Assembly (NCBI RefSeq): GCF_037975245.1
Contig: NC_092583.1
Location: 2,721,264-2,785,263, forward strand
DNA length: 64,000 nt
Source of the DNA: Apostichopus japonicus
Taxonomy: Eukaryota > Echinodermata > Holothuroidea > Aspidochirotida > Stichopodidae
Direction of reading: 5' to 3'
Positions 5,852 through 25,263 of this stretch are shown here, piece by piece (position 1 is the first letter of the stretch; the number at the start of each line of letters is the position of its first letter). The notes under the pieces are model-generated. The model saw nothing but the letters and a program-made list of their open reading frames with translations. It made no database searches and was not told where the DNA came from. A program made the position numbers and the translations under genes.

Positions 5852-5905
5852 ATCGCTTCTCGGCCATTTGGCTAAGATCATGTATGGTAGTATATCTGTT
5901 CTTTT
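5852..5905 (+). pseudogene. U2 snRNA 5' fragment (pseudogene)
   Basis: Begins ATCGCTTCTCGGCC and continues with TTTGGCTAAGATCA and GTAGTATATCTGTTCTT, the conserved 5' end of spliceosomal U2 including the GUAGUA branch-site-pairing segment. It carries substitutions and a small insertion, and similarity stops after TTCTT. The SL II, Sm and SL III/IV regions are absent, so this is a truncated retro-copy and not a functional gene. It lies antisense within the IgGFc-like gene's intron. Confidence 0.75.
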
Positions 5906-6106
5906 TTCGAGTGGAATCTTTATACACACCTGACGATGATCATACAGTCACAGTCTTGATGAAAATGAGAATGGTGTTGAGAGCGGATCAGTCGTTTGAT
6001 TGTTTATGATTCCATGTGCAGATTTGTACCGTAATTTGAGTTGTACTCGTTTCAGATCCCAACAAAATAAAATCCCTGTCACTAATATTTTTATGTTTGA
6101 TCTTAC

Positions 6107-7387
6107 CTGTCTGAGGGTCCTTTGATGAACAAGTTAACTTTCTAAGATTGTAACCAGCGGGAAATGCGTACGCCGTACCCGGACCGAACCCGTATATGAT
6201 GGCACTGAAAAAGCCGTCTGGCATGACATTCGAAATGATTTGTGGTCCTGTGGATAATGGTATCGTGAGGTCGGCGCCAAAACTGGACAAACCACCATTA
6301 ACACTGGCATCGGGTTCTTCAGCTAAGACGGTAACGTCATTGAGAGAGGGAGTAAATAAAGAAGGTGACGTCACAGAGATAGCGGCGTAACTCGTAATGT
6401 TGTTTGACCCCGCTCCGTCAAAGGTCGCGAACGTGACGAGACCATTGAAATACTGTTCAATTGGCGGTATGATCACCATAAATGGGTCTCCCACACCGTC
6501 TGCTTGCATTCCCTTAGCAAACTGAACCACCAACACCGGTTTATTCGAGTTAATACCGAGAGGGAACTTTGCAAGTTGGTTAAACTCCATAAACTGACCA
6601 GATCGCGATATCTGAACGGTTTCGCCGGAGACTTTCACTACGGTGTTGGCTCTGGCAGCGATTATTCTGAAGATATAGCCAGAACCTCGATCCAGTAAAG
6701 GTTGCAGGCTGAAACGTTTGCCCCATGTATCAACAGGTGGGATCATTTCAACTAAGTGGTCACATCGCGATGTTTTCTGCGGTACTTCGGTGCATGTTGA
6801 GCCGGAAAGTACAGCAATCGCTTTGTCCGATGTAATCTGTGTACCAGTCAAATCATTGGCTGATTGGAACTGTATCGTCTGTCCTCTTTGTAAACCGAAT
6901 ATTATTTCCTCCCCTGCCGCGAAAATGGTTCCTCCGTAGTTTAATTTTTGAATCGATACAATTTTTATTCTTGTTAAATCGCTTTTAGCTGTAATCACAA
7001 ACTGTGATTTTTCGTTCCCGACCGTCGTGTAGGACGGTATGAAGTACTCCTTACCGAGAGCATCGGTAGGAATGACAAGGAATCCATCGGTAGATTTAGA
7101 CAGAGAATTTATCGCTTGTACGTTTACGTCTCTGCTTGTGCGAATAAGAATGGTTGTGTTCTGGAATCCATTTCCGGCACAAACCGCCCCTACCGGTATA
7201 TTGACTTTACTGACTGAGGTATTTACAACGGTTAGAACCTGTTCAAAGTTTATGGATGGAACAGTCACTACGACGTTTGTTTCCCCTACCGACAAACCGC
7301 CGATGTGAACCTGTACGGTTTCCGGTGTATCATAGTTGCTAGGAAAGGCAAAGATAAACTCACGTCCTCTGGTATCTGGGATAGGTG
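6107..7387 (-). CDS. IgGFc-binding-protein-like module, copy 2 (internal exon)
   Basis: A single 1281-base exon encodes about 427 residues of an IgGFc-binding N-terminal-type domain, a module seen in FCGBP and related secreted invertebrate proteins. A long frame with an ATG at 7427 exists, but a good acceptor (polypyrimidine then ACCGCAG) ends at 7388 and a consensus donor CAG|GTAAGA follows 6107. Both introns are phase 1, so the exon is a symmetrical 1-1 module of the kind used in exon shuffling of extracellular proteins. It joins in frame (ACA G|GA) to the exon at 4899-5251. The true first exon with a signal peptide was not identified. The domain is assigned by resemblance; ligand binding cannot be inferred. 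Confidence 0.75.
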
Positions 7388-7802
7388 CTGCGGTAAAAAA
7401 AATCAAATATTGAGCTATTAGAGCCATTACCGCGATATATTGGTCGTCGTGACTTTATCCTTTCATCACAACTATGACGTCATATAAAGAAATGGTCAAA
7501 ACACTTGATTTTGTGAATAGTTTAGGTGGACCTGAGCATCCAGATATTTAACATAGTAAATAGAATCGAAATTATAAAAAAAATGTTATACTGAGAGCAA
7601 CCGGGAAACTTGTGTGTAAAGTCTCTTGACCGTATGTATGTACTTGAGCGCCGAATATATTTTTAAAGCTTTAGCGCGGCATACATTTTCAATCGTACAA
7701 CCGTTGCATTTATGTCGAAATAGATGCTTTAAACCCATATGACAGGTTGTTACAAAAGAAACCCCTGTGTATGTAAAGCAAAAAAGTACAAAGATAGGTC
7801 CT

Positions 7803-9887: not shown

Positions 9888-9927
9888 ATGTTGAAAGCAG
9901 TGATTTTGATAGGCGGCCCACAGAAGG
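9888..9927 (+). CDS. GMPPA: GMPPA exon 1 (residues 1-14)
   Basis: ATG at 9888 begins [14 protein letters not shown], the first beta strand and the GG of the nucleotide-binding loop, exactly as in known GMPPA N-termini. The donor AAGG|GTGAGT leaves phase 1. Confidence 0.95.
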
Positions 9928-12900
9928 GTGAGTATTTTGTACAGCTGTTTTTATTTGAGATGTTTATTCTGCCCAAGACCTTGTCAGAAGTCATAGTTTT
10001 ATCGTACCCACAACGTTGCTAGTAGTTCCACGATGTTTTGTAAATCGATAACACAATCACCTTATTTAGCCTAGGCCGTTAGTGTTAGGACTTGTATCTA
10101 TCGTCGTGGAAGTTACTTGACATCCTTGAAAATCAACCTGATTATGAGATGAATGTGCAGAATCTCTCTGGCTATACCTAAGCTAGCACAATACCCCAGC
10201 GAGGAGGCCTAGACCTAGCACATACATTGTTACACTTCCAAGTTCCATTAGCATCATTAGGCTAGCTCCTACTCAACCATACCCCTACCATCTTGTTGCT
10301 TACAACTGGTTTTATCCTATATACGCTATCTAAACCCTCATTCAGTATCCCATTGTTAAGATGCACAAACTGTTTGAAGCAAATGCCCAGCCTAGATATA
10401 TTCTGATAGCCTCTGGCAAACCATAATGTTACAATACTGCTTTCAGTTTTGATATGTTGCATACAACTCACATCATTATAATGAGGTACATTTTTCTCTA
10501 GAACTGTTTCACAAAGGATGAACAATTTAAAGGTGTTTTTTTTGTAAATTATCAACATAAGTCATGGAAGCTAGCATTTTTGTAAAATAATGCTAACAGC
10601 TTGCACACTTGCATTGGTATACCACTGTTCATATTCAAGACATATCTAGCAACTTCTCATAGCTCTCATCTACATGCAGTAGAGCATTGAGAGTGTTGTG
10701 GTCAAGTTTTTAAGGCAGTGTACATGTTTTGTAAGGTTTACAGGTTATCGTTGACAGGGGTAATATTGTGATGTACCTTGAGCACTGCTATCGGTGGGTA
10801 TGCCTGCGCCTTATAAATCCTCAATATTATTATATTATATTGATAGGACTTTGCTATACCATAGACAGTGTGCTGGTGTAAAGGAATTTCGCTTTCTCAA
10901 TCTTTGTGAAGGGACCAGAATATGTGGAAAAAGTGTCTCATTGTGTATATCTGACTGTTTTGAAAGGGAAAAGATTATTTAAAAAAAAGCAGCATTGGTA
11001 TTGGTTAGTATATGTTTGTAGTGAAATGCAAACTGATGCCTAAGTCAATTTCATATACATGTATAAGTTAGCTCAAACCAAAGACAAAGAATTTTTTTCT
11101 TTTGAATTTAATTTTCACAGGAACAAGATTCCGTCCCCTCTCGTTGGAACTACCGAAGCCCTTATTTCCTGTTGCAGGTTTTCCCATTATATATCATCAT
11201 ATAGAAGCATGTGTGAAGGTAAAGTAAATGTCAAACTAATCAGTCATTGACCAGACTAAGTTTTTTTTAAGTTTTAAGGACTGCAAAAAGTACACGTTCT
11301 AAAACAAGTGTACAAAATGAGATTGAATATTCTTTCCATTGTATGTGACAATGACTAGAACTAATGTTGTTTATTCATACATTCATCCCAAATACTTCCC
11401 CTCAAGTCTCAACACTAGAAATGATCAACACTGCTGGGGTATGACTGTAACCTTTAGTTTGTTATCATGTCCAGTGGTAACATTAATTAATATTAGAAGT
11501 ACATTTGTTACATGAACTGATTCCCTTTGAAACAACCATTCAACAGGTAAGGATTAACCGAAAAGTCGACTACAAATTCGACATCTTTAAAATTTCTGCT
11601 GTCTTTTCCAATAAATGATTACCTGGAAATATTTTTTAACCTGTGCAGGAATATCCATATAATCCATTCACTCCTGTTTTCATACTTCCAGTCATTTTTC
11701 GGACAAGCTCCCATCCATACATGACAGGGTGTCTGCGGTGGGGGGGGGGTGTGTTTTGCTTTATTTTTGCCTGTATGATTGGAGCGTGTTCAGTTGGCAC
11801 AGTTTGTGAAGTGGGCATACATTATACTGCTTTACTTTAAGCTGTGTGAAGCACATCACACCTAATGAGGCCAAGGAAATAAATGTTATTTAATTTTATT
11901 CGTTGCCAATGAGATTTATCTTTAAGGACATCACTTCCTGAATAACAGGATGCAGTCATCTTTAAAGAGGTGAATGGCTGTCACTCTTGGGTACGGCCGA
12001 AAGGCATGATTAGGCAACATAACCTATATGGTCATATAGAAAACCTCTTTGCATCTGGATTAAAGATTATTTAGGGTTCAAATTGACCCTCTGAGTAGCC
12101 GTTCCCCCTCTCCCTTCCTCAAAGAAAACATTTTCCATAAAATATCAATCGTTGCTCCTCTCCCCCCCCCCCCCCCCTTACTGTTTTACTGTTTTAAATA
12201 CTGGCAATTTTTCCCCTGAAGTTCCCCTTCCTAGGGATTGAACTGGGTTTCACCTATTTTATTCGTAACTTGACAATTTTGTATCAGCGAACTCAATTTG
12301 TGAATTTTTCATTAAATTGTAAAAAATGCAGATGAAATGATAAATTAAACAGGGCATGAAAGAGCATCTTGTTTTTCCAAACTTTAAAATCATCGATAAG
12401 TTCAGATTCAAGGATTGGATACATATTTTTCAACCTCAAGTGTTTTCAAGTAGTTTGTAATATAATGTAATTTAATTTGTTATTTCAAGCCTGTTGTCTT
12501 GTGTACAATAGCTGTCTGTGTTCCCACTGTTGTATTTCAAGTTTTCAAGCCATTTTGTTTTGGTTTTTCCAGTAGATTGTTTAGATATCATCATTTGTGT
12601 TTTATTTATCTCTGTTAACATTTATCCTCTTCCCTTAGCAACTTGATATTCTCATTAAAACCACAGCTTTTCAGTATTCTGTCTCTAATTTCTCTTATCT
12701 CAGCTACCAGAAGTCAAAGAGATCCTTCTGATCGGTGCCTATCAACCCAGCGAAGCTTTGAATAGATTTATCGCAACCACGCAGAGGGAACTGAATATAA
12801 ATCTCAGGTGAGGATATTTTGGTGAAAGCCCAGTGACAAGCAAAGGGGGAGGGCATGGTTAATGATCTATTCCCCTTGGCTGATAAAAATGATTTGAACT

Positions 12901-15865
12901 GATATGTATTCTGTGTCCACTTATTTCAAAGGGATATTTCGGTGGTAGATAATGTAACAAAGAGAAAAAAAAAATCCGCACTGTTAGTCGAAAATCCCTT
13001 CTAAATACCTTGTCCCTTTCTTTGAGATACGGTTTATTGAACGTAACCTGGTTAGACTAATTAAATTAATTACTCCTGGAAGTGGGTTACAGAAGGTAGT
13101 CTGTGATATCATAATGGTGGACGTCTCCTTGTTGTAATTTCGTTTTGCTTTGTCCATGAAGACTGATACCCTTCGGGTGCTTTACTTACCTGTCAACTCG
13201 TCTGTATTTATAAGAATTTCATTAAAATGCCATTTTTTTCTCTAAAAATATCATAATCCTGTGTGAATAAATATTTTAAAGAAAACTCTTTTTATCTTTA
13301 ATAATTGCCCCGATGACATCATTTAATCTCCTGTTACCTGATGGCTTCACCAAATTATCTCCAAATTTGAATTATTCGTATCCTCTCCTTATAATAAATG
13401 CTATGAGGATGTGGTGTTGTCTTACAGACCTGTGCAGGATAATTTCCAGCAGTTTTGTTATACATTGTACTATTGTGCCTTTGTGTTTAGTATCACATCA
13501 TAAGTATATATAAATATTGCATTTTTGCATTTTTCCAGGTATCTTCAAGAATACACAACTCTCGGGACTGCGGGAGGCTTGTATCATTTTAGAGATCAGA
13601 TTCTCGCTGGTAAGCCGAGTGGATTCTTTGTCTTCAACGGTGACATCTGCTGTGACTTCCCCATGGTCGATATGTGGAACTTTCACCAGCAAGTCCAAAC
13701 TGGAGATCACTTCACCATGCTAGCGGCAGAGGTACGTGAATATTGGTAGTATAAAACTATGCTTTTTGTTATGCTCTGTTAGGTTATTATTTCATTCTTT
13801 ACAAAAAAAATTAGTCAACGATATGCTTTTTAATTCACAGTTTGTTTGCAAGACCTATGTTTTAGTTGCATGTTTCTTTAAGGCTATTTGTGTGCCAAGT
13901 TAAAAACATTTTTTTGTATGATTTTCCACAATTCAGTATATAAGCTGAAGGGGTCAGGTTGGACCATTTTGTAATGAATAAAAAGTTTTAACTTTTTAAT
14001 ATCTTCTAATTTGCCCTTTTGGCATGTGAGTATTGATACTAATAAATATAAAATCTGGTCAAACATGTTTTCATATTAATACATTAATTAACTATGACTT
14101 TTATGAATTACGACATGTTTGAGATGATTTTTTTTTTTATCATGAGTCTCTTTGGCACTCTTTTGTTACCCAGGCAACAAGGAAGCAGTCATTACAGTAT
14201 GGGTGTCTGGCTGAGAACGAGGAAACACATGAGGTAAAACTTCAGCTGTATTACTAACTTCTCATTACTAAAGAAACAGCATTTAGTTATCTCCTCATTG
14301 GGTCATTAAATGTAAAAAGTAGCATTATCGACAGTTACTGTTTACTGTGTGAGATCAATCTCTGTATTGCCTCTGCAGTGGGGGGAGGGGAGGGGGAGGG
14401 GAGGGGGAGGTGCAGGGTGAGAGGAATGAAGACTTTTTTTAATATGTTTTGGTCAGTAATCAGTTTGATTGGGTAAAGGACTCCCAGGAGAAAGCACTCA
14501 GAACAATTATCAGATCTGATATAGACTCTACTCTACCTGGTAACTATGGTAACATTAACATTTTCTCTAATTTCATCTGTGCACACTGGCTTTCCTATAT
14601 AAAAGCAAACTTTCTGTATTGCAGATTTTCACAAACAGGTTTCACCTTGTACTTGTTGTTTTCGTTTTAGGTCCTTCACTACGTCGAGAAACCACAGACA
14701 TTTGTGAGTTCCAGTATTAACTGCGGAGTGTACATCTTCACCCCTGAAATATTCTCCCATATTGGGGCTGTCTTTCTCAAAAACCAGGCGGACGTCTTCA
14801 AGTAAGATTCTCTGAGTTAAAATGTCATGGTACATTCTCTTCATCAATGTATTTCACTTTGACAAAAATTCTTAATAGTAAATTATGACTTATTCTTCTC
14901 CTAAAATTGTATTGGTTTTACAAAACTCATCGGGATAATTGGCATGATGTATAAAGCGGATTTGTGATGCTAGTGAGGTATATGTGTGTTAATTGAGGGC
15001 TCCTCTGGAAAGCAGATAAATAAGCAAATAAAAAAATTAACACAAGGATAGACAAATTGATTGAAACATCATCACATGTGTTATGTCCATACTGTGCAGC
15101 AAAGCTAGAAAATGAATATTTATGAATTTTCAAGTTTATACTTTCTGTGGTTGGCATGGCGAATTTAATACTCGACTTCATACACCATTTCATGTCAACA
15201 AGGCTACAATACATGATTTTTACTTAATTTACTGCCATGTATTATACGTTTGGAGACAGTTAGTCAGTCTAGTTATGCTGAGGGTAAAGGCTTACATTGC
15301 CTTTGATCTTTGATTTCAATTGGAGTAATACAAAGGGGTTTTTCATTATCATAGAGCTATCTGCACCGCTTCTAGAAAAAGTTATAGTTTCAGCAAGAAG
15401 AGATCAACTTAAGTGTTAGGGGAGTGTAAATGTAATTGATTCAAAGGTTAGTAATTATGACTACTTACTTCAATATATATATATATATTTTTTTTAAAAG
15501 TACAAAAAAAAACCTTTTTAATTTAAAAAAAAAAGTTGTTAATGGAACAGATTACAAATCAGTTACCACAGAAATACATGAGTACCCAGGTCTCTGATTT
15601 GAATCTTGTTCCTAGTAGAAAAATGAAATCCACTTTTTCAAAAGTTGTCTGTGATTCCCAGTTAGTTTTCTCTCGTTCCATTTTCTTGAGTTTAGTTTCA
15701 AACCAATCTTTTTGTCTCTCCATAGCGGAGGCGACAATATCAATCCTGTCCGAGACTGTATCCGCTTGGAGCAGGATATTCTCTCGCCTCTGGCCGGTGC
15801 GAAGAAACTTTATGTCTTTAAGACCACCAGATTCTGGAGTCAGATCAAGTCAGCTGGGTAAGACC

Positions 15866-15898
<33 letters not shown>

Positions 15899-18800
15899 GT
15901 GCATTATAATGTATCACTTTTAGATGAAAATTCATCCCCTATGTGTCCAAATTTTCAGCTGTGAATGCACATTTCAAAATAATTCCATTAATTAAAGGCA
16001 TTAGACGTTTCTTTGGCGCGAGTTTTCACACCCTTTAAGGAAATAATTCATGTAAGTTACAAATTTTAAAAAACGTGTTTTGGAGCTTTTAGTTAAATCA
16101 CTCAGTATTGTTCATCCTCGTGTTTGACTCAGTAGTTTAATTGTTATTAGATTTTGTCCGACTGAAATGTAATTGTACCTCTTGTCTTTGCATCTCAGTA
16201 CTGTCAATCTCGTTAGCCTAATTGCTTCTGACTGTATCGATTAGTGTTTGAACAGTAAAAATGTTCTTTTGTTTTAATTACTGCTGGTCTGTTTAAGTTA
16301 GTAAATCCTCCCATTTTCCACAATTTGTGTTCTGTTTTTCTCATCATTCCCCCCCCCCCCCCCCATTTTACAGCTCAGCGATCTATGCCAACAGGCTGTA
16401 CCTGAGCCTCTACAACTCGACTCATCCCGAACGTTTGGCTCATAATAATGACAACGGGCCGAAGATTATTGGAGATGTCTTCATCCACCCATCGGCCAGA
16501 GTCGATCCTTCAGCCACGGTAAATTAAAGTCTTAATAATCTAGCTTATTTGTGATAGTCTATGCTAAAGATTTAATTTGTGGCAGTCTATGCTAAAGAAT
16601 TTAATTTGTGATAGTCTATGCTAAAGAATTTATACCATAACCAGAAGATAGTGTGTTGTATTTGCTGTTCAGTGGTCTATCAAGCTGCCTGTATTTTATG
16701 CTGTTGTGTCACGTTGTGCCACAGTTTTGTTACGTTGTCCCATTATGCCACATAACCATCATAAACTGACTTGCAAACATTGCCTTAAGATGAAACAAGA
16801 GGGAAAGTAGATGGAGGGAGGGGAGGGGGGTAGCAGACAGTCAGAAATAGCAGTACTCTTAATACGCAAGTAAACGCTGAACACGTTCATACAAAATAAC
16901 GTCAACCATTAAGTGGAATGTTTAGAGAATAAATCCTCCAACCAGTATTGTCCTGTCTTGCACAAATTAAAAACAAAATTAGAATTTGAAAGTGATTATT
17001 TTATAGTCATGGTTCCTAACTTTGTATTTAATAATCATCTCTTAAAAAAAGTGTTTTTTTTTCTTTCTCCTTTCTGTAGCTTGGTCCAAATGTTACCATC
17101 GGTGCTGGAGTCACAGTTGGTCCAGGGGTGAGGGTGAGGGAGTCTTTGGTTCTAGAGGGTGCTACTTTACAGGTAGGTTTGATCAAAGTTGAACATACTA
17201 TCCATTCAGGGGTGTAGGGTAGGGATGCTATGACAAATATGTATTTTGCAAGGTGGTAGAAGGCATACAAAACTTACAACCTTTTGAAGTGATGCATTGT
17301 GGGGGATATAGACTTGAAAATTAAGAAACAAATTGAGTATAATTGAATGGGTACACCATTTTTACAGTGGTACCAGAACCATACACCACCTTTTTGCTTA
17401 TTTTTTTTAAACTTTTAGTTTTATCTATTAATTTAAGAGCAGCCCCTCATAGCTCATTGTTGTACCTTTACTATGCTCTATTTATTTCTGAGCAACACCA
17501 CATCTTTACTTCTCTCTATATATTATTAATAAGCACTTCATTGATTTACTACTCTCTATTTATTCTCGAGCAGCTACTCCTGAGCAACACCATATCTTTA
17601 CTGCTCTCTCTATATATTATTAATTAGCACTTCTTTGATCTTATCTTTACTACTCTCTATTTATTCCTGAGCAGCTACTCCTGATCAACACCACATCTTA
17701 TCTGCTCTCTATATATGATTAATAAGCACTTCATTGATCCCATCTTTAGTACTCTCTATTTATTCTTGAGTAGCTACTCCTGAGCAAGACCATATCTTTA
17801 CTGCTCTCTATATATTATTAATCAGCACTTCATTGATCCCATCTTTAGTACTCTCTATTTATTCCTGAGCAGCTACTCCTGATCAAGACCATATCTTTAC
17901 TGCTCTCTCTATATTATTAATCAGCACTTCATTGATCCCATCTTTAGTACTCTCTATTTATTCCTGAGCAGCTACTCCTGATCAAGACCATATCTTTACT
18001 GCTCTCTATATATTATTAATCAGCACTTCATTGATCCCATCTTTAGTACTCTCTATTTATTCCTGAGCAGCTACTCCTGATCAAGACCATCTCTATATAT
18101 TATTAATCAGCACTTCATTGATCCCATCTTTAATACTCTCTATTTATTCTCGAGCAGCTACTCCTGATCAAGACCATATCTTAACTGCTCTCTATATATT
18201 TTAATCAACACTTCTTTGATCATATCTTGAATACTCTCTATTTATTCCTGAGCAGCTAGTCCTGAGCAAGACCATATCTTAACTGCTCTCTATCTATTTT
18301 AATCAACACTTCGTTAATCCCATCTTTACTACTCTCTTTTTCCATTTGATTTATTCCTAGTATATTTTTGAGCAACCTCTCAATTAATTAATTAATTAAT
18401 TACTTATATTTTATTCCTTCCCTTTCAGGATCACTGTTGCATTCTGCATAGTATTATTGGCTGGAATAGCTCTGTAGGAGCCTGGACGAGGGTGGAGGGA
18501 ACAGCTAACGACCCGAACCCTAACGACAAACACGCCAAGATCGACAGCAGCACTCTGTTTAACGAAGAGGGAAAACTGAATCCTTCCATCACCATTTTAG
18601 GTAATTTTATAATTAATTGAATTAAAAATTGAACTTCCATTTGACCTCGTTCACATCTAATAGAGTTACTGAGAGGGATAAAACATTGTATAATATCAGC
18701 CATTTTGTGCTAGCTTTTTATGCCCGCTAAATTCCTTGAAATTTCTGGCTGAAATTAGGTATGAAATGCTTCCATTTGACCTCGTTCATATCTAATCTAA

Positions 18801-21800
18801 TAGAGTTATTGAGAGGGATGAAACATTGTATGATATCAGCCATTTGGTGCTAGCTTTTTATGCCCGCTAAATTCCTTGAAATTTCTGGCTGAAATTAGGT
18901 ATGAAATGCTTTCGCTGGATGAGGTGTGCAATGGTCTTATTAACCTAGGAGAAGAGCAGTGGTTCAGCGTGCCTGTATGAAAACTACGAATGCTAAATGA
19001 GGAGTGGAATGGGGGTCAATTTGGGTTGGGGGGGGGGGCATTGTACCTGAAGTCTAATTTATTGCCATCCTTGGTGATGGGTCTAAGCACAGGTGTGCAA
19101 AGTACTGGCTGTGGTCCAAGTTTTGTGCACCCTATATGGAATTAATTGCCTAGAATGGTGTGTGGGCACTTTAATATTTCTTGTGTGGGGGTCACAGGGG
19201 GGGGGGGAGGGGTGTCCTAGATCCTACCAAATTAAAACCCATAGCTGAATGAGTAGTTCAATGTGCTTGCTGAATGAGAGTATGGTGCTGTTGCTCTATG
19301 GGAAGTCCATTGAGAATTTACAATAGCTCATACTACTGCTTTTCCAAAAAAAAAATGAAAAAATGTTCATTTTGTAATACATTCCAGGAAATGTAAAATC
19401 ATGGTCACATATTCATAATAGTCATAATCATAGCTGCAACAATTTTTTTTTGTTTAGATTGCTCCACCTTTATTGGTGTTATATGTTAAGGTACCGGTGT
19501 CAAAATTTGGATGCTGAGGGGGCTGCAGCCAGACTGCATTGGACGTAACCTTTTGTGCTGTACAGTTTCACACACAATAGGTATTGCCAGCTTGCTAACA
19601 TTAACTGGGTTGTTTGTTATTATTGATTCAGCTTTGCTGCAGGGGATTTTGGAGCTGCTGCAGCCTTTATGGGTTAAATACACTTTTTAATGAGATATTG
19701 TTGTTCAGACCTGTTTATTAATAATGCATACATGCACATTTTTTTTGTGGTATATTGGTATTTATGATGCAGAGGTGTATGCTAATGGCTGCTAATTCTG
19801 TAACATTTTTGTTGTTGTTCTCCATGCGTGTCAATACAATGATAGGAATTTTTGTTCATACCAGAATCATTTAATTATGGTCAACGTGTTAGTAGTAGGT
19901 AATGGATATCTCTATGCTCGTACACTTAAAAGGGATGATGAAGGGTTTTGACCTGAGAGTCCCAGATTGTCTTAGCTTTATATTTGACTGATTGAAAAAA
20001 GGATTTTGCAGTTGTGCAAATGTATATAGATGAGAATTAGTTGAGACTAGTGGAACTATAATCTCACTAGTTTCACTAGTCTCAACTAAGTCTCATCTAT
20101 TCTTTGCTCTGTCCACCGAACATTGCGTAGCATATATATATTATAAGAGGAAACCATTGAAATAAGATATGACTCATAATTGACAAATATGAAGTTAAGG
20201 TTTAGAAAATATATTGGAATTTTCGGTCCCCCTTCGCCAGCAATACTTGGCAGTCGCAAGGGCCCCAAGTCTTTGTTGAGGCCAGTGATGTGAGACTTAA
20301 TAAGAAAGATCCAATCGATTTCTTTACGTTTACGTTCAGTGGTGGATTTGAAGTTCGAGGCAATTAAAATGCATTTTAGGTGTTTGAGAGAATGACTATG
20401 AAGATTGAAATGTTCCGAAACGGGGAATCCTGCAAAAATATCACGAATAGATTTTTGGTGGTTATTAAACATAATTGCCTTGATACGATTTCGGTTGTGG
20501 AAGGTTCTGAAGGGGGTAGGCGTGTTAAGCAATGTAATTTATTTACAAGAAAAACAAAGTTCCAGGCTATAACCTGTCAGGTGACATCAGTGTTCCATAA
20601 TTTACTGCCAGTTAAAGAAGATTGTCAAAGAAAAAGGGAAAATATTAAAATTGAACCTTACGTTTAAGCTTATTTTGGTATTAGAATTGGTGGCAGTTTT
20701 GCATTCTCTAACCCCCCCCCCCCCCAAATTTAATCGCTTGCCCATTTGGTATTTCCTTCACAGAAGAGTTAATGCATGAAAATATCACGCATGTTGAAAC
20801 ATAGCTCTGCTACAGTTTGTCTCTTAACATCTGTGGAATGAGACCTCTATTGTCAGACACGAGAAAAAAACAAAACAACTCTGCACAACGTAGGCAAATG
20901 AACTATGAAAGGATAACTTTTGATTACAAAAAAAAAAATTCTTGATGAGTTTTATATCATTAAAAATCACTGCTTTCCATCCAGGTTTTAGTTTTCTCTA
21001 CCAAAGAAATGACCCTTTAATCAGCTGAGGTTCATCAATTAAAGTGACTGGACTATGTAGTCTAATACACAGACCATAACATCAGATAAGAACACAATAC
21101 CTCAATGTGGAAACAAAAGGCTTTTTGGCCTCAAAAAGAGACTAAGTTTTTGAATATAGTATAAAATTTGTCAATAAAAAATGGTGTTGAATGTCATCCA
21201 AGGGTGCTCTATTGTTTATATGAAATTAATATGAAGCTGTTTTGCTTGAGTTATTAGAATTTATGAAACGATAGAGATATAAGATTAACATTAAGGCCTG
21301 CACTGAGGAGCTGATCTCATCATTCACTTAATAGCTTTAAAGGAGTCTTCCAGAAATTTAGCATATTTTGAAAATATCAGTAGCAGTAGGAACATTTACG
21401 AGCACTCAAGTTTTTTTGCTTCCTTGGACTACTTTATGTCTCAAGACTTACAATTCTGCTTAAAGTCATCCATAAAACATGAATGTTAACATAAAAACAT
21501 AAAGATTGCCTCCTGAATATCTAGTAAACATGTGAGATTGTTATTTGTTAAGTGAATAAATTAACATGACAGGTTGAACCGTGACAGCGTTCACAGCAAC
21601 CTAGGCTGTTTTGGAAAACTCTATCAGAACCTTCCGCAAGTTGAGTCACAGGTCCATAAAAGGCAGATAATCAGAATTAATTGAAACGGCTGAATTAAAA
21701 GTATTCACAACCTCCCAAACTTGTTGACCAATATCATTCCCATGCATGCATTACTTCACAAAAACCCAAGTTTTTCAACCACCTATTAGGAGCCAAGACA

Positions 21801-23771
21801 TCCTTTCTCATTCCTACGTGCCAAAGTGACCGATAATAGAGTTATCCATACTACATGGCAATACATCTTATTTCATCTAACCCATTTTTCACATATTTCT
21901 TCGTTTTATTCCTCATTCCTTCAAATGCTGCTAATCCCATCCATTTTGACCTCTCAGGTCGTAATGTCGTCGTTCCATCGGAGGTCATCGTCCTCAACTC
22001 CATAGTCCTGCCTCATAAGGATCTGAGATACAGCATAAAGAACCAAATATTACTCTAGCTACACATGCCTATTATCTCAAGGTATGCTCTTTCTACTGCA
22101 TGTCGTAGCTTGTTCATGAATATGCATGTTGTCTTTTAACTCTCTATCAATGATCACAGCATGTTTGTCCCTTTCTCCTAATCAATGTCCGTTCGTGTCT
22201 TTGTCATTCAGCATGGTGTTTGCCATATTTTGTTCATTTTTTTCTCTCTATTTACATGTTATGCAAATCCATGATCATGTGTTCATGGCAATACATTAAT
22301 GTGCTTTACATTGTGTTGTTTTCTTGAGGCCATCAGTCTAGCCCCCAATTATGTTATAAATGGCGAGTAATGGTCACCCATGCTAAAAACCATCAAGAAG
22401 TGTTTCTTGCTACTATCACCTTCAAATCACTTTCCCTGCATCGATGTTAAGCTATTAAATATTCTATTTCTCGGAATACTTCAGGAGGGGGGGGGGGGGG
22501 CTTCACAGCCCAGGACCTACAGGAAAGGACTTTCTTTGAAAAAGTAAGATAATCATAGCATGCTAAATTCTTTAGGCAATACTGATGCCCAATATGAAAC
22601 TGTTTTGTCATGTTTACCCAAGGTGTGAATATGATAAAGTAGTTGCCGTGGTAACATCTATGTGCTTTGTTTGTTTGTTTTGGTTTTGCTGTTGATGGGG
22701 TGTCATACTTCTAGTGCTTCTCATTATGGCTGGCTATGCGGTTCATGGTCTGATTTTAATTGCTGTGTGGTGCTATTAAACTTCTTCAATATTTACAATT
22801 TCTTAATTACTTCTTCAGTATTCTGTAATCTTACAACAGAGAGAGAGAGAGCTAGAGAGAGGATCCAAGCAGTATCAGGATGAATGGTTGACATCACAAA
22901 GAATTTTTCTTTGTAAAATTTTAACAAAATATTGACAGGAATGGAAATGCCAGTCAAAAAACAGAAAGACTCTAAATATAATGAAGACAAAATCTAGAGC
23001 AAGGACTTCCATGCTAACAATCAAGGTTACAAAGTGTGAACAGTAGTCATATCTTACAGTATTTTTACAACCGCCATTGCGACAATTTCTAGATTCTTTA
23101 GTTAAAGAATCTTGGGTTCAGGAATAGATGTAGGCAGATATCATCTTAAAAGATTAAATATCAGTACTGCAGGAGGTGGTGATATTCCTTGCTATTTTTT
23201 TTAAATTTGGCCATTCCAAACATAAACGGATGGCTTTCTACTCCCAAATTCTCTCTAACAAGCAGAACATCTCAACATTTTGACGGCACCATTTTTTTTT
23301 TTGATACCCTATCCATCATTTGTGCTCAAGCTCCCATCTTGGGTGATTCTTTTGGTACAGTTATGTAAGAATATCCAAGTAGATAGTTAGGTAAACTGCA
23401 GAACCCTGTGTCAGACTAAGGCTGTGGGCATTCCATCCGTAACTTCTAAGCCGTGGAACTCTTTGCCTCACTGTATCCAATCTGTAGCCTCTAAACCTTC
23501 TCAGAGAAAGATTTCAAGCCCATCTTGCTTGTTTTCTTTTTAATTTAGGTCCATGTTCCACCTACTATTGATATACGTAAGCAGATGGCTGTGACTTGGA
23601 TAATGGTTCTTTATATATATGATTATTAATATTTGATATTAATTTGTTGTAATATCTGTGATTTTTGCAGGTAGGAATGTTGTGATCCCACCAGAAGTGA
23701 TGGTTCTTAACGCCATCCTCCTCCCAGATAAGGAGCTCTCGTCTAGCTTCAAGAATCAGATTCTTCTGTAG
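9888..23771 (+). CDS. GMPPA: Mannose-1-phosphate guanylyltransferase regulatory subunit alpha (whole gene)
   Basis: Eleven coding exons join without a frame break into 422 residues (vertebrate GMPPA is about 420): 9888-9927, 11121-11218, 12704-12807, 13539-13731, 14174-14233, 14671-14801, 15726-15857, 16374-16518, 17080-17172, 18429-18600, then 21958-22058 or 23671-23771. GMPPA is the catalytically weak partner of GMPPB in the cytosol. It binds GDP-mannose and feedback-inhibits GDP-mannose synthesis from mannose-1-phosphate and GTP, which supplies N-glycosylation, O-mannosylation and GPI anchors. Visible features: nucleotidyltransferase motif [13 protein letters not shown] (residues 9-21), [22 protein letters not shown], an NGD aspartate at about 116, VEKP at 170-173, and left-handed beta-helix repeats from about 285. 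The insertion DPNPND (360-365), typical of the alpha subunit, separates it from GMPPB. The last exon exists in two versions. Confidence 0.95.
11121..11218 (+). CDS. GMPPA: GMPPA exon 2 (residues 14-46)
   Basis: The acceptor TTTTCACAG precedes the exon. It encodes [20 protein letters not shown] followed by a helix ending in HHIEACVK, completing the phosphate-binding loop and the PK motif. The donor AAG|GTAAAG is phase 0. Confidence 0.95.
12704..12807 (+). CDS. GMPPA: GMPPA exon 3 (residues 47-81)
   Basis: Begins [18 protein letters not shown] and ends in ELNINLR, matching the second beta-alpha unit of the guanylyltransferase fold. The acceptor is ATCTCAG and the donor CTCAG|GTGAGG, phase 2. 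Confidence 0.95.
13539..13731 (+). CDS. GMPPA: GMPPA exon 4 (residues 81-145)
   Basis: Carries [20 protein letters not shown] and [13 protein letters not shown]. The aspartate of NGD (about 116) corresponds to the metal-binding residue of active family members. The acceptor is TTTTTCCAG and the donor GAG|GTACGT, phase 0. Confidence 0.95.
14174..14233 (+). CDS. GMPPA: GMPPA exon 5 (residues 146-165)
   Basis: A 60-base exon encoding [20 protein letters not shown], the strand around the conserved YGC motif. It is bounded by ACCCAG and GAG|GTAAAA, both phase 0, so it could be skipped without a frameshift. Confidence 0.93.
14378..14411 (+). repeat. G-rich run, quadruplex-capable
   Basis: Repeated GGGGAGG blocks in GMPPA intron 5 give more than four G-tracts of three or more, suitable for a G-quadruplex on the sense strand. 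Confidence 0.7.
14671..14801 (+). CDS. GMPPA: GMPPA exon 6 (residues 166-209)
   Basis: Begins [24 protein letters not shown] is the sugar-binding EKP motif, and the following strand ends in [10 protein letters not shown]. The acceptor is TTCGTTTTAG and the donor TTCAA|GTAAGA, phase 2. Confidence 0.95.
15726..15857 (+). CDS. GMPPA: GMPPA exon 7 (residues 209-253)
   Basis: Encodes [13 protein letters not shown] and FWSQIKSAG, the end of the catalytic-like domain. The acceptor is CTCTCCATAG and the donor GCTGG|GTAAGA, phase 2. A (TGTC)n run begins 9 bases inside the following intron. Confidence 0.94.
15867..15897 (+). repeat. (TGTC)n microsatellite beside splice donor
   Basis: About eight tetranucleotide units just after the exon 7 donor at 15858. 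Confidence 0.9.
15992..16038 (-). mobile_element. MITE family 1, 47-base internally deleted copy (copy D)
   Basis: Reads on the minus strand as the first ~42 bases of the family 1 left end (TTAAAGGGTGTGAAAACTCG through AAACGTCTAATGCC) closed directly by TTTAA. Almost the whole interior is missing. It is located in GMPPA intron 7. Confidence 0.55.
16374..16518 (+). CDS. GMPPA: GMPPA exon 8 (residues 253-301)
   Basis: Encodes [13 protein letters not shown] and [18 protein letters not shown], the linker into the first left-handed beta-helix hexapeptides. The acceptor follows a C17 polypyrimidine run (CATTTTACAG); the donor ACG|GTAAAT is phase 0. Confidence 0.95.
17080..17172 (+). CDS. GMPPA: GMPPA exon 9 (residues 302-332)
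   Basis: [20 protein letters not shown] is a clear hexapeptide-repeat (left-handed beta-helix) segment, ending LEGATLQ. The acceptor is TTTCTGTAG and the donor CAG|GTAGGT, phase 0. Confidence 0.95.
17477..18345 (+). repeat. Minisatellite of about 100 bp units in GMPPA intron 9
   Basis: About nine tandem copies of a ~100 bp unit containing TACTCTCTATTTATTCCTGA, GCAGCTACTCCTGATCAAGA and TATTATTAATCAGCACTTC. The central units are most alike and the outer ones most diverged, as expected for unequal-exchange homogenisation. Confidence 0.95.
18429..18600 (+). CDS. GMPPA: GMPPA exon 10 (residues 333-390)
   Basis: Encodes [19 protein letters not shown], then the alpha-specific insertion with DPNPND (360-365), then LNPSITILG. 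In GMPPA a C-terminal loop has been implicated in inhibiting GMPPB, and this insertion is the likely counterpart. The acceptor is CCCTTTCAG and the donor TTTTAG|GTAATT, phase 1. Confidence 0.95.
18632..18908 (+). repeat. Tandem duplication of about 140 bp, GMPPA intron 10
   Basis: Two adjacent, nearly identical copies, each containing CTTCCATTTGACCTCGTTCA and TTTTTATGCCCGCTAAATTC. Confidence 0.9.
19500..19680 (+). repeat. Dispersed repeat family 2, copy 1
   Basis: Contains GAGGGGGCTGCAGCCAGACT, GTGCTGTACAGTTTCACAC and GAGCTGCTGCAGCC. The same elements in the same order occur at 63294-63530, so this is a dispersed family of unknown class, in GMPPA intron 10. Confidence 0.55.
20026..20100. repeat. 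Near-perfect 30 bp inverted repeat
   Basis: The arm at 20026-20055 (ATAGATGAGAATTAGTTGAG...) pairs with 20071-20100 across a 15-base loop, with only two or three mismatches. It directly abuts the Penelope-like coding remnant. Confidence 0.85.
20086..20532 (-). mobile_element. Penelope-like / GIY-YIG endonuclease coding remnant
   Basis: The minus-strand frame contains [47 protein letters not shown] and GLNKDLGPL. This order matches the C-terminal GIY-YIG endonuclease region of Penelope-like retroelements and related invertebrate ORFs (family knowledge). The amino-terminal GIY-YIG catalytic motif is not visible and the start is arbitrary, so this is a truncated, dead copy in antisense orientation within GMPPA intron 10. 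Confidence 0.55.
21958..22058 (+). CDS. GMPPA: GMPPA alternative last exon 11a (residues 390-422)
   Basis: The acceptor GACCTCTCAG is followed by 101 bases read in phase 1 to TAG at 22056. The protein begins [19 protein letters not shown] and ends in KNQILL. It is the copy closer to the vertebrate C-terminus (LNSIVLPHK). A possible ATTAAA signal lies near 22453. Confidence 0.9.
22059..23670 (+). other. Spacer between GMPPA last exons 11a and 11b
   Basis: Would be 3' UTR or intron depending on exon choice. It contains a G run at 22488-22500 and short GA repeats near 22841. No second coding unit was found. Confidence 0.7.
23671..23771 (+). CDS. GMPPA: GMPPA alternative last exon 11b (residues 390-422)
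   Basis: The acceptor ATTTTTGCAG is followed by 101 bases to TAG at 23769, the same length and phase as 11a. The protein begins [19 protein letters not shown] and ends in KNQILL; 23 of 33 residues match 11a. If 11a is spliced in, its stop excludes 11b, so the two are mutually exclusive terminal exons. A long 3' UTR may extend to ATTAAA near 25095 followed by a GT-rich stretch. Confidence 0.9.
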
Positions 23772-25110
23772 TAGGAGCGGCAAACCTAAGGTCGAAGGTC
23801 AACAATGATGACATGAACATCATCAATCCTGTTAATGGTGAAAACTAATTCTCGGCTGTCTATACAACAGGATTAGAATGGTTTTATGCCAAAGTCAAAA
23901 TATCTATAAATTTATCTCTCCCAATTTTGTGAAACTGACGGAAGCAGTCAGAGGCGGGTTTCGGATGAGGATAAAATGTATACGCCAATGGCAGGAATAC
24001 AACACAGAAATTTTATGTTGACATTTCATTTGCCTAAAGAGCAAAATAACCTAAAGAAGTATGTAGTAGAATTTCATAGTTGTAAGCAAGTTGAATGTGG
24101 AAGAATTTTGATGTTGGAAGAGTTTCTCCAAATATTTATGTGAAATGCTCAATTGGCCTTTTTTTTTGGGTGATTAATTTTTTAAGAATATTTGAAATGA
24201 TTAGTCAGGTTACCTGGGTAAAGTCAGGAATCAAAAATAAATTTGACAAGAAAGTTATATAAGTTAAAGAAGTGTTAGCTCAGTGGTCATAGGAGTGTTA
24301 TCTCAGTGGTTAACGCCAGTGCAGGCTTCCAATCATAAGGTCCCCGGTTCGAGTCACTACAAGATTAATGTATGTCGTCCAGTTACAGAGTTGTTGACAA
24401 TTGACAATTCATAATCATGGACGTTAAATATGAATCTAAGAGACTGACTTTAGTTAGCTTGCGGCTTTGATAAGCCAATGATGGCTTCTCTGCGAGATCC
24501 TGCTTGCAGGAGGATCTAAAATACATCCCTTAAGGGTAACAGTTTGAAAGTACCAGTTTGTAGCGACTTCATCATACCATAGAGATGTAAGATGATACGC
24601 TAATAATTAATTTTTTAGCCTTTGAAGAAGATCCTGCTAGGATCGAAACATCAGGCCAACTTACTTTTACACATTCTCCTACACAGGCTCTCTAGTTTGC
24701 TAACAGTTTTATTTTATTTTGAAGCTAATAATTACTATATAACTTAAGTTTCAAACAATCATAGAAATTTAATGTTGTTTGTTTGAATGTTTGTTCGGCA
24801 TCTACATATCTGTTATGTGAGGCAAAACATTGTACGAGTGAAAATTTGGCAAGATTGAATGGAATTGGCCAAAACTTACTGGGTTCCGAGTGCATACTTT
24901 TGCTTAATGTCTCTGAGCTGTAAGTGACTTGTAAGTGACTTGTTGTATGTTTAAAGGGGCCTGGATTGAGAATACTTGTAAAAATTGAAGGAAAGAATTA
25001 GTAGCAGTATTTATGAGATTTTTAGAAGAGCTAATGGACTTTTGCATTTACAAATTAAAGTTTATAGTATTTTGTAATTCTACTAGTTGTTTTATTAAAG
25101 TAAAAATCAA
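23772..25110 (+). other. Probable GMPPA 3' UTR and flank
   Basis: No coding frame. It contains the tRNA-derived SINE (24270-24540) and ends near an ATTAAA with downstream GT-rich sequence (around 25095-25125), a plausible polyadenylation site. Confidence 0.5.
24270..24540 (+). mobile_element. tRNA-derived SINE
   Basis: A tRNA-like head with A-box TCTCAGTGGTTAACGCC (24301-24317) and B-box GGTTCGAGTCAC (24346-24357), preceded by a duplicated A-box-like GTTAGCTCAGTGGTCAT. The body ends with ATCCTGCTTGCAGGAGGATC, which recurs at 44381-44400, marking a repeated 3' tail. The tRNA stem pairing is degraded, so this is a SINE and not a tRNA gene. Confidence 0.65.
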
Positions 25111-25263
25111 AAGTTAACCAGATGTGTTGTTTCTTTTCTTCTCTGATTCGCATATTATAAGGAATACACAGTTTTTAGCTAAATTATAAGGATATAAGGA
25201 ACAAAAGACCACATTTTCTACATCCTCCACATTGAAGAACATGTCCCAGCGAGAATGTGCTGT

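What the first reader, a model, noticed from the sequence alone, without database searches (positions are those of the whole stretch)
21958..23771. GMPPA has two complete, mutually exclusive terminal exons
Exons at 21958-22058 and 23671-23771 are both exactly 101 bases, both enter in phase 1 after exon 10, and both end at a stop aligned to the same codon. They encode alternative 33-residue C-termini with 23 identities. Both acceptors are good and neither frame is damaged, despite strong nucleotide divergence, so both appear to be under selection. The segment caps the beta-helix domain next to the alpha-specific loop implicated in inhibiting GMPPB. Isoform choice could therefore tune GDP-mannose feedback. 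I know of no described duplicated GMPPA last exon.
Basis: partly seen in the sequence, partly recalled or inferred. Interest (0 to 1): 0.85.

Follow-up and report, generated by a model that had tools for sequence, protein, structure and literature searches.

The report
GMPPA with two alternative ending exons
In this animal, the gene for the subunit thought to put the brake on GDP-mannose production carries two different, intact and apparently selected versions of its last coding segment, so it can probably make two forms of the brake; duplicated exons of this type are known in other genes, and I found none described for this one.

Summary
An 11-exon GMPPA gene lies on the + strand (9888-23771). 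Exons 11a (21958-22058) and 11b (23671-23771) are both 101 bases, enter in phase 1 and end in TAG at the same codon. Each completes a 422-residue protein that matches human GMPPA equally well (584.5 and 584.0 bits). They differ at 9, 2 and 23 first, second and third codon positions, and each keeps about as much human identity as the whole protein (20/33, 21/33), so both appear constrained. In the 672-Mb genome, GMPPA searches find one locus and two exon-11-like segments, both here; a misjoined paralogue or allelic copy is very unlikely.

"Mutually exclusive" is not shown. A donor-like site (AAG|GTATGC, 22082) lies 23 bases after the 11a stop, so 11a may be a stop-bearing cassette exon spliced on to 11b; it could instead be a last exon with its own poly(A) site. 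No expression data or sister genome was available. Half of the differences lie in the tail (H409D, R413S, Y414S and others; net charge +2 versus 0); an effect on GMPPB regulation is inference. Verdict: real; new member of a known kind; moderately interesting.

The parts
9888..18600 (+). GMPPA exons 1-10: 9888-9927, 11121-11218, 12704-12807, 13539-13731, 14174-14233, 14671-14801, 15726-15857, 16374-16518, 17080-17172, 18429-18600
   Evidence: Spliced model, GT donors and AG acceptors; full-length match to human GMPPA 7d72_A; entry phases
21958..22058 (+). Exon 11a, coding part with TAG stop; encodes (G)[32 protein letters not shown]
23671..23771 (+). Exon 11b, coding part with TAG stop; encodes (G)[32 protein letters not shown]
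22079..22087 (+). Candidate 5' splice site AAG|GTATGC (first intron base 22082), 23 bases after the 11a stop
   Evidence: Scores above 6 of the gene's 10 inferred donors; an equal or better site occurs in 2.1% of 24-b, 4.3% of 50-b and 8.4% of 100-b windows away from exons
22290..22295 (+). Candidate proximal poly(A) signal for 11a (AATACA followed by GT-rich sequence); alternatives ATTAAA 22454 and GATAAA 22633
   Evidence: Own rough score: top 5.5%, 6.7% and 4.9% of 507 hexamers in the window; no AATAAA between the exons
25094..25099 (+). Candidate distal poly(A) signal (ATTAAA followed by GT-rich sequence); another is AATAAA 24236
   Evidence: Top 0.4% (25094) and 8.9% (24236) of 507 hexamers by the same score

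Best explanation
This GMPPA gene, found once in the genome, makes two protein isoforms that differ only in the last 32 residues, by using one of two homologous stop-bearing exons, 11a or 11b, after exon 10. Shown: both exons are intact, in phase, bear the marks of constraint as protein code, and are the only two such segments found in the genome. Inferred: both are used. The RNA step I favour, at about even odds, is a stop-bearing cassette: including 11a (stronger acceptor, donor at 22082) ends translation in 11a and leaves 11b as 3' UTR; skipping 11a gives the 11b protein; both mRNAs then share the distal poly(A) site. The 11a stop would lie 23 bases before the junction, inside the usual limit of about 50 bases, so the mRNA should escape nonsense-mediated decay (established rule, recalled, not tested). 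Function, inferred: the part in the last turn of the beta-helix changes mildly while the tail changes chemistry (H409D, R413S, Y414S; net charge +2 to 0). This would most plausibly alter how GMPPA fits into the complex with GMPPB, and so feedback strength or complex stability, in particular tissues or stages. The confidence below is for two used isoforms; the cassette step alone is about 0.5.
For: Both full proteins match human GMPPA end to end with equal scores. Differences fall 9/2/23 on codon positions 1/2/3; 20.5 changes on 23.0 silent sites against 13.5 on 73.0 replacement sites, Fisher p 7e-10 on counts cut to whole numbers. If one exon had drifted freely for half, 15% or 10% of the divergence, two or fewer second-position changes in 32 would have p 3e-10, 0.002 or 0.03. 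Human identity is 20/33 (11a), 21/33 (11b) and 260-261/419 overall. One GMPPA locus and two exon-11-like segments in 672 Mb. Donor-like site at 22082 and strong acceptor of 11a. Two of nine listed human GMPPA missense disease variants, Arg390Pro and Asn401Thr, fall in this segment (PMC12449260 passage). Homologous-exon isoforms are over-represented in human proteomics (PMC4465641 abstract).
Against: No transcript evidence at all. 11b has the lowest-scoring acceptor of the gene. A very recent loss of function of one exon is not excluded: neutral drift of 0.1 or 0.2 substitutions per site still leaves frame and at least 22 identities in 64% or 21% of simulations. The donor at 22082 has a few per cent chance of being coincidence, and moderate poly(A)-like sites do follow 11a. 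The Arg at human 390 is Asn in both exons, and the interface residue named in the case report (318) is outside exon 11, so the link from this segment to regulation is indirect.
Confidence: 0.8

Rival explanations
1. Alternative last exons proper: exon 10 splices either to 11a, which ends at its own proximal poly(A) site, or to 11b with a distal site. The same two proteins result, with different 3' UTRs, and the choice is made partly by 3'-end processing.
For: AATACA 22290 with a GT-rich stretch, ATTAAA 22454 and GATAAA 22633 follow 11a. This layout is described for homologous 3'-terminal exons of human capping protein beta (PMC3228551 passages).
Against: No AATAAA between the exons; the 11a candidates rank only in the top 5-7% by my score while 25094 ranks in the top 0.4%; the donor-like site at 22082 would be coincidence.
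Confidence: 0.4
2. Only one of the two exons is used today; the other is a relic that lost its function recently and has not yet decayed.
For: No expression data. 11b's acceptor is the weakest of the gene and 11b alone lacks the His of the LPHK motif seen in human GMPPA, human GMPPB and this species' GMPPB.
Against: Both frames, acceptors and stops are intact and both keep the human identity of the whole protein. Free drift for 15% or more of the divergence is rejected at p 0.002.
Confidence: 0.15
3. Assembly artefact: one exon comes from a second GMPPA gene, a retrocopy or the other haplotype, joined in by mistake.
For: No sequencing reads were available to check the join.
Against: 13 matches to full-length GMPPA in the genome: 11 are this gene's exons, 2 are GMPPB on another contig. 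The two exons are 33% different in DNA, too much for haplotypes, and lie on one 18.2-Mb contig.
Confidence: 0.02

Closest known systems
Human GMPPA (PDB 7d72_A), regulatory alpha subunit of GDP-mannose pyrophosphorylase
   Same: End-to-end homology with either exon, 260-261 of 419 aligned residues identical; carries the alpha-specific insertion before the last segment
   Different: The human protein in the PDB corresponds to one C-terminus; no second homologous last exon was seen in the papers searched, though no human genome was searched
Homologous 3'-terminal exons with separate poly(A) sites, e.g. human capping protein beta (PMC3228551 passages)
   Same: Two homologous last coding exons of similar length and the same phase
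   Different: Here a separate poly(A) site for the upstream exon is not established and a donor-like site follows its stop
Differentially included stop-bearing exon, e.g. Drosophila muscle myosin heavy chain (PMC3228551 passages)
   Same: The upstream stop-bearing exon could be included or skipped before a shared end
   Different: Not shown by transcripts here; whether the myosin exons are as similar to each other was not checked
Duplicated final exons of preGNAS in cephalochordates (PMC5896119 passages)
   Same: Local duplication of 3'-terminal coding exons giving two C-termini in an invertebrate deuterostome
   Different: There the last two exons form the pair and the protein is a G-protein alpha subunit
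UAP1 isoforms AGX1/AGX2 (PMC10138107 passage)
   Same: A splice choice in one gene changes the behaviour of a sugar-nucleotide pyrophosphorylase
   Different: AGX2 carries an extra 17-residue peptide; it is not a swap of homologous exons, and the enzyme itself rather than a regulatory subunit is altered

Membership tests
GMPPA (GDP-mannose pyrophosphorylase alpha subunit) | Full-length homology to GMPPA, closer than to GMPPB | tested here: met
   584.5 / 584.0 bits to human GMPPA against 186.8 / 182.3 bits to human GMPPB
GMPPA (GDP-mannose pyrophosphorylase alpha subunit) | Alpha-specific insertion in the beta-helix domain, absent from GMPPB | tested here: met
   Residues 357-384 (exon 10) align to human GMPPA and fall between the two matched stretches of GMPPB
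GMPPA (GDP-mannose pyrophosphorylase alpha subunit) | No catalysis of its own; binds GDP-mannose and inhibits GMPPB | not testable with these tools
   Known for the mammalian protein (PMC11228364 and PMC9856158 passages)
Homologous alternative (tandemly duplicated) exons | Similar length, same phase, splice or stop pattern and sequence homology (criteria of PMC3228551) | tested here: met
   101 b each, phase 1, AG acceptor, TAG at the same codon, 23 of 33 residues identical
Homologous alternative (tandemly duplicated) exons | Both copies constrained as code | tested here: met
   Codon-position contrast and human-identity comparison; very recent relaxation not excluded
True mutually exclusive exons | Cluster of internal exons flanked by further exons | tested here: not met
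   Both exons carry the stop codon; no coding exon follows in this gene model
True mutually exclusive exons | Exactly one of the pair in each transcript | not testable with these tools
   No transcript data; the donor-like site at 22082 would allow both in one mRNA
Alternative last exons with separate poly(A) sites | A poly(A) site of its own after the upstream exon | tested here: inconclusive
   Only moderate candidates: 22290, 22454, 22633

The most novel reading that the evidence does not exclude
11a is a regulated stop-bearing cassette exon. Its inclusion or skipping swaps the tail of the GMPPA brake between a basic, human-like form (LPHK, net +2) and a neutral form that has lost a histidine kept in human GMPPA and in GMPPB. 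This gives one animal lineage a splice-controlled set-point for GDP-mannose feedback.
Probability: 0.2. Interest if true: 0.65.

Novelty: new member of a known kind. Interest (0 to 1): 0.45.

Why it matters
[quoted passage not shown] A lineage that keeps two versions of a segment in which two human disease variants fall would be a natural experiment on what that segment does, and would suggest that the supply of a basic sugar donor can be set by splicing. Even without that, it adds a well-constrained case to homologous alternative C-terminal exons; homologous-exon isoforms in general are reported to be over-represented at protein level and ancient (PMC4465641 abstract).

Tried and rejected
Misjoined or second GMPPA gene, retrocopy, allelic copy: rejected, since the searches find one locus and two exon-11-like segments. 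Partial tandem gene duplication: no second copy of exons 1-10 in the window at E <= 0.1, apart from a 17-residue opposite-strand match at E 0.098 inside exon 9 itself, and no convincing similarity between the flanks of the two exons beyond a 104-base alignment over the exon; other matches had E 0.017 or more. RNA pairing that could enforce exclusivity: only weak long-range inverted repeats (72-85% over 20-32 bases) in 18601-25200; not pursued. Control: the partner GMPPB shows one last-exon match in the 9.9 kb fetched (E 1e-16; next 2.3), so no duplicated last exon was seen there. Relatives elsewhere: viral contigs gave 20 pattern matches, 0 confirmed; genome contigs 77 and 0. These are viral and prokaryotic collections, so they say nothing about other animals. 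Rfam at gathering thresholds and ARAGORN found nothing in the window. The species is not identified; an echinoderm-like animal is only a guess from memory. The splice-site matrices use metazoan base frequencies from memory and the poly(A) score is my own; both are rough.

Corrections: the third-position count was entered as 22; the right value, 23 of 32, was used. The residue numbers printed for the differing positions are one too low; this report uses 395-416. The typed human GMPPB stretch has wrong letters before DPSA; the alignments began at DPSA. Whether 22059-23670 is repetitive did not complete (all busy).
Full report
What is there. On the + strand the window holds a GMPPA gene: ten exons from 9888 to 18600, followed by two candidate last coding exons, 11a (21958-22058) and 11b (23671-23771). 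All ten inferred donors begin with GT and all eleven acceptors (exons 2-10, 11a, 11b) end with AG. Each last exon completes an open frame of 422 residues. Both proteins match human GMPPA (7d72_A) from first to last residue, with 584.5 bits for 11a and 584.0 for 11b. Pfam finds nucleotidyltransferase, GMPPB_C and hexapeptide domains above their cut-offs.

The pair. Each exon is 101 bases, enters in phase 1 and ends with TAG at the same codon. They share 67 of 101 bases, and 23 of 33 residues counting the junction Gly. Comparing about 1.5 kb around 11a with the surroundings of 11b gives one clear alignment, 104 bases over the exon; weaker matches have E 0.017 or more. Exons 1-10 have no second copy in the window.

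In the genome. The window lies on an 18.2-Mb contig of a 672-Mb assembly in 35 contigs. A full-length GMPPA query gives 13 matches at E <= 0.001: 11 are this gene's exons 2-10, 11a and 11b, and 2 are GMPPB on contig C20 (GMPPB confirmed). A 43-residue query containing 11b gives two matches at E <= 1, the two exons. Within the limits of that search there is no second GMPPA gene or retrocopy from which one exon could have been misjoined.

Selection. Differences fall 9, 2 and 23 on first, second and third codon positions. Nei-Gojobori counting gives 20.5 changes over 23.0 silent sites and 13.5 over 73.0 replacement sites (Fisher p 7e-10 on counts cut to whole numbers). Silent sites are saturated, so dN/dS cannot be given a number, but replacement change is far rarer than silent change. 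Such a pattern could arise if only one exon were constrained, so that was tested. If one exon had drifted freely for half of the divergence, seeing at most 2 second-position changes in 32 has p about 3e-10; for 25%, 1e-5; for 15%, 0.002; for 10%, 0.03. A very recent loss of constraint is not excluded: drift of 0.1 or 0.2 substitutions per site leaves the frame and at least 22 identities in 64% or 21% of 20,000 simulations, 0.45 in 0.02%. Against human GMPPA, 11a keeps 20 of 33 and 11b 21 of 33 residues, in line with 260 and 261 of 419 for the whole proteins. Of 32 positions, three are human-like only in 11a, four only in 11b, and six are shared by the pair but not human. Third-position G+C is equal (0.59 each; gene body 0.53). 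So both exons have been held to the protein for most of their history. The saturated silent sites and the lack of flank similarity indicate an old duplication; its age cannot be given.

How the choice may be made. 'Mutually exclusive' goes beyond the evidence. 23 bases after the 11a stop is a donor-like site, AAG|GTATGC at 22082. It scores above six of the gene's ten inferred donors and is in the top 1.7% of GTs in the window. Windows away from exons hold one at least as good in 2.1% (24 b), 4.3% (50 b) or 8.4% (100 b) of cases. No AATAAA lies between the exons. The best poly(A)-like site, ATTAAA at 25094 with a GT-rich stretch, is downstream of 11b (top 0.4% of 507 hexamers), against top 5-7% for the best three after 11a. 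11a has a better-scoring acceptor than 11b (5.4 against 1.7, the lowest of the gene). I therefore lean, at about even odds, to a stop-bearing cassette: including 11a yields the 11a protein with 11b as untranslated sequence, and skipping it yields the 11b protein. The rival is a pair of alternative last exons with separate poly(A) sites. Both arrangements are described for exons bearing the stop codon (PMC3228551 passages). The matrices and poly(A) score are rough and rest on frequencies from memory. No convincing RNA pairing was found.

What the swap would do. Exon 11 encodes the end of the beta-helix domain and the tail, right after the alpha-specific insertion in exon 10. [quoted passage not shown] This is stated in the VTC1 paper, which cites the cryo-EM work (PMC9168903 passages); the cryo-EM paper itself was not read. 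Of nine human GMPPA missense disease variants listed in one case report, two, Arg390Pro and Asn401Thr, fall in this segment (PMC12449260 passage; numbering). The Asn is kept in both exons, but the Arg position is Asn in both; and the residue reported to matter for GMPPA-GMPPB interaction, 318, is outside exon 11 (PMC9283290 passages). The first five of the ten differences are mostly mild (V395I, S397P, I400M, S404A, V406L). The other five lie within eight residues of the tail (H409D, D411E, R413S, Y414S, I416F), and the net charge of the segment goes from +2 (also human) to 0. The His is present in human GMPPA, human GMPPB, two further PDB chains named Mannose-1-phosphate guanylyltransferase 1 (7x8j_A, 8yre_D) and this species' own GMPPB, but not in 8yre_A. 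At that place 11b is the more changed tail. An effect on fitting with GMPPB is the most plausible consequence, but it is inference.

Known or new. Eight paper searches were made in the open-access library; six named GMPPA or its full name. None of their listings named a duplicated GMPPA exon. The one GMPPA splicing event I looked up in human tumours is coded 'RI', which I read as intron retention (PMC7510085 passages); PMC8117221 and PMC7554623, which also mention GMPPA, were seen only as listings. Homologous alternative exons as a class are well known and reported to be ancient and over-represented at protein level (PMC4465641 abstract). The finding is a new member of that class, not a new kind of system.

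Limits. No transcript or other animal genome could be reached. The viral and prokaryotic collections gave no relatives, which is uninformative for animals.

Noticed in passing
window 24292-24526: A dispersed repeat of about 235 bases in the 3' flank of exon 11b: 39 other copies at 90-94% identity were listed, with 2351 first-look candidates of which 40 were scored. By eye it has a tRNA-like box (GGTTCGAGTC), as in tRNA-derived SINEs.
   Followed up: partly
window 5852-6065 (+): A U2 spliceosomal RNA-like stretch covering the whole Rfam model but below its gathering score (38.9 against 46 bits), probably a diverged or pseudogene copy.
   Followed up: partly
window 5988-7454 (-): A 488-residue open frame with an IgGFc-binding domain (PF17517, E 1.2e-65), upstream of GMPPA on the other strand.
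   Followed up: partly
window 17488-18341: A minisatellite of about 99-base units, 8.8 copies at 88% match, fills much of GMPPA intron 9.
   Followed up: no
window 18634-18911: A two-copy tandem duplication of 140 bases just inside intron 10, 34 bases after the exon 10 donor.
   Followed up: no
window 20086-20538 (-): A 150-residue open stretch in intron 10 that by eye resembles the end of a retroelement protein; no Pfam match.
   Followed up: no
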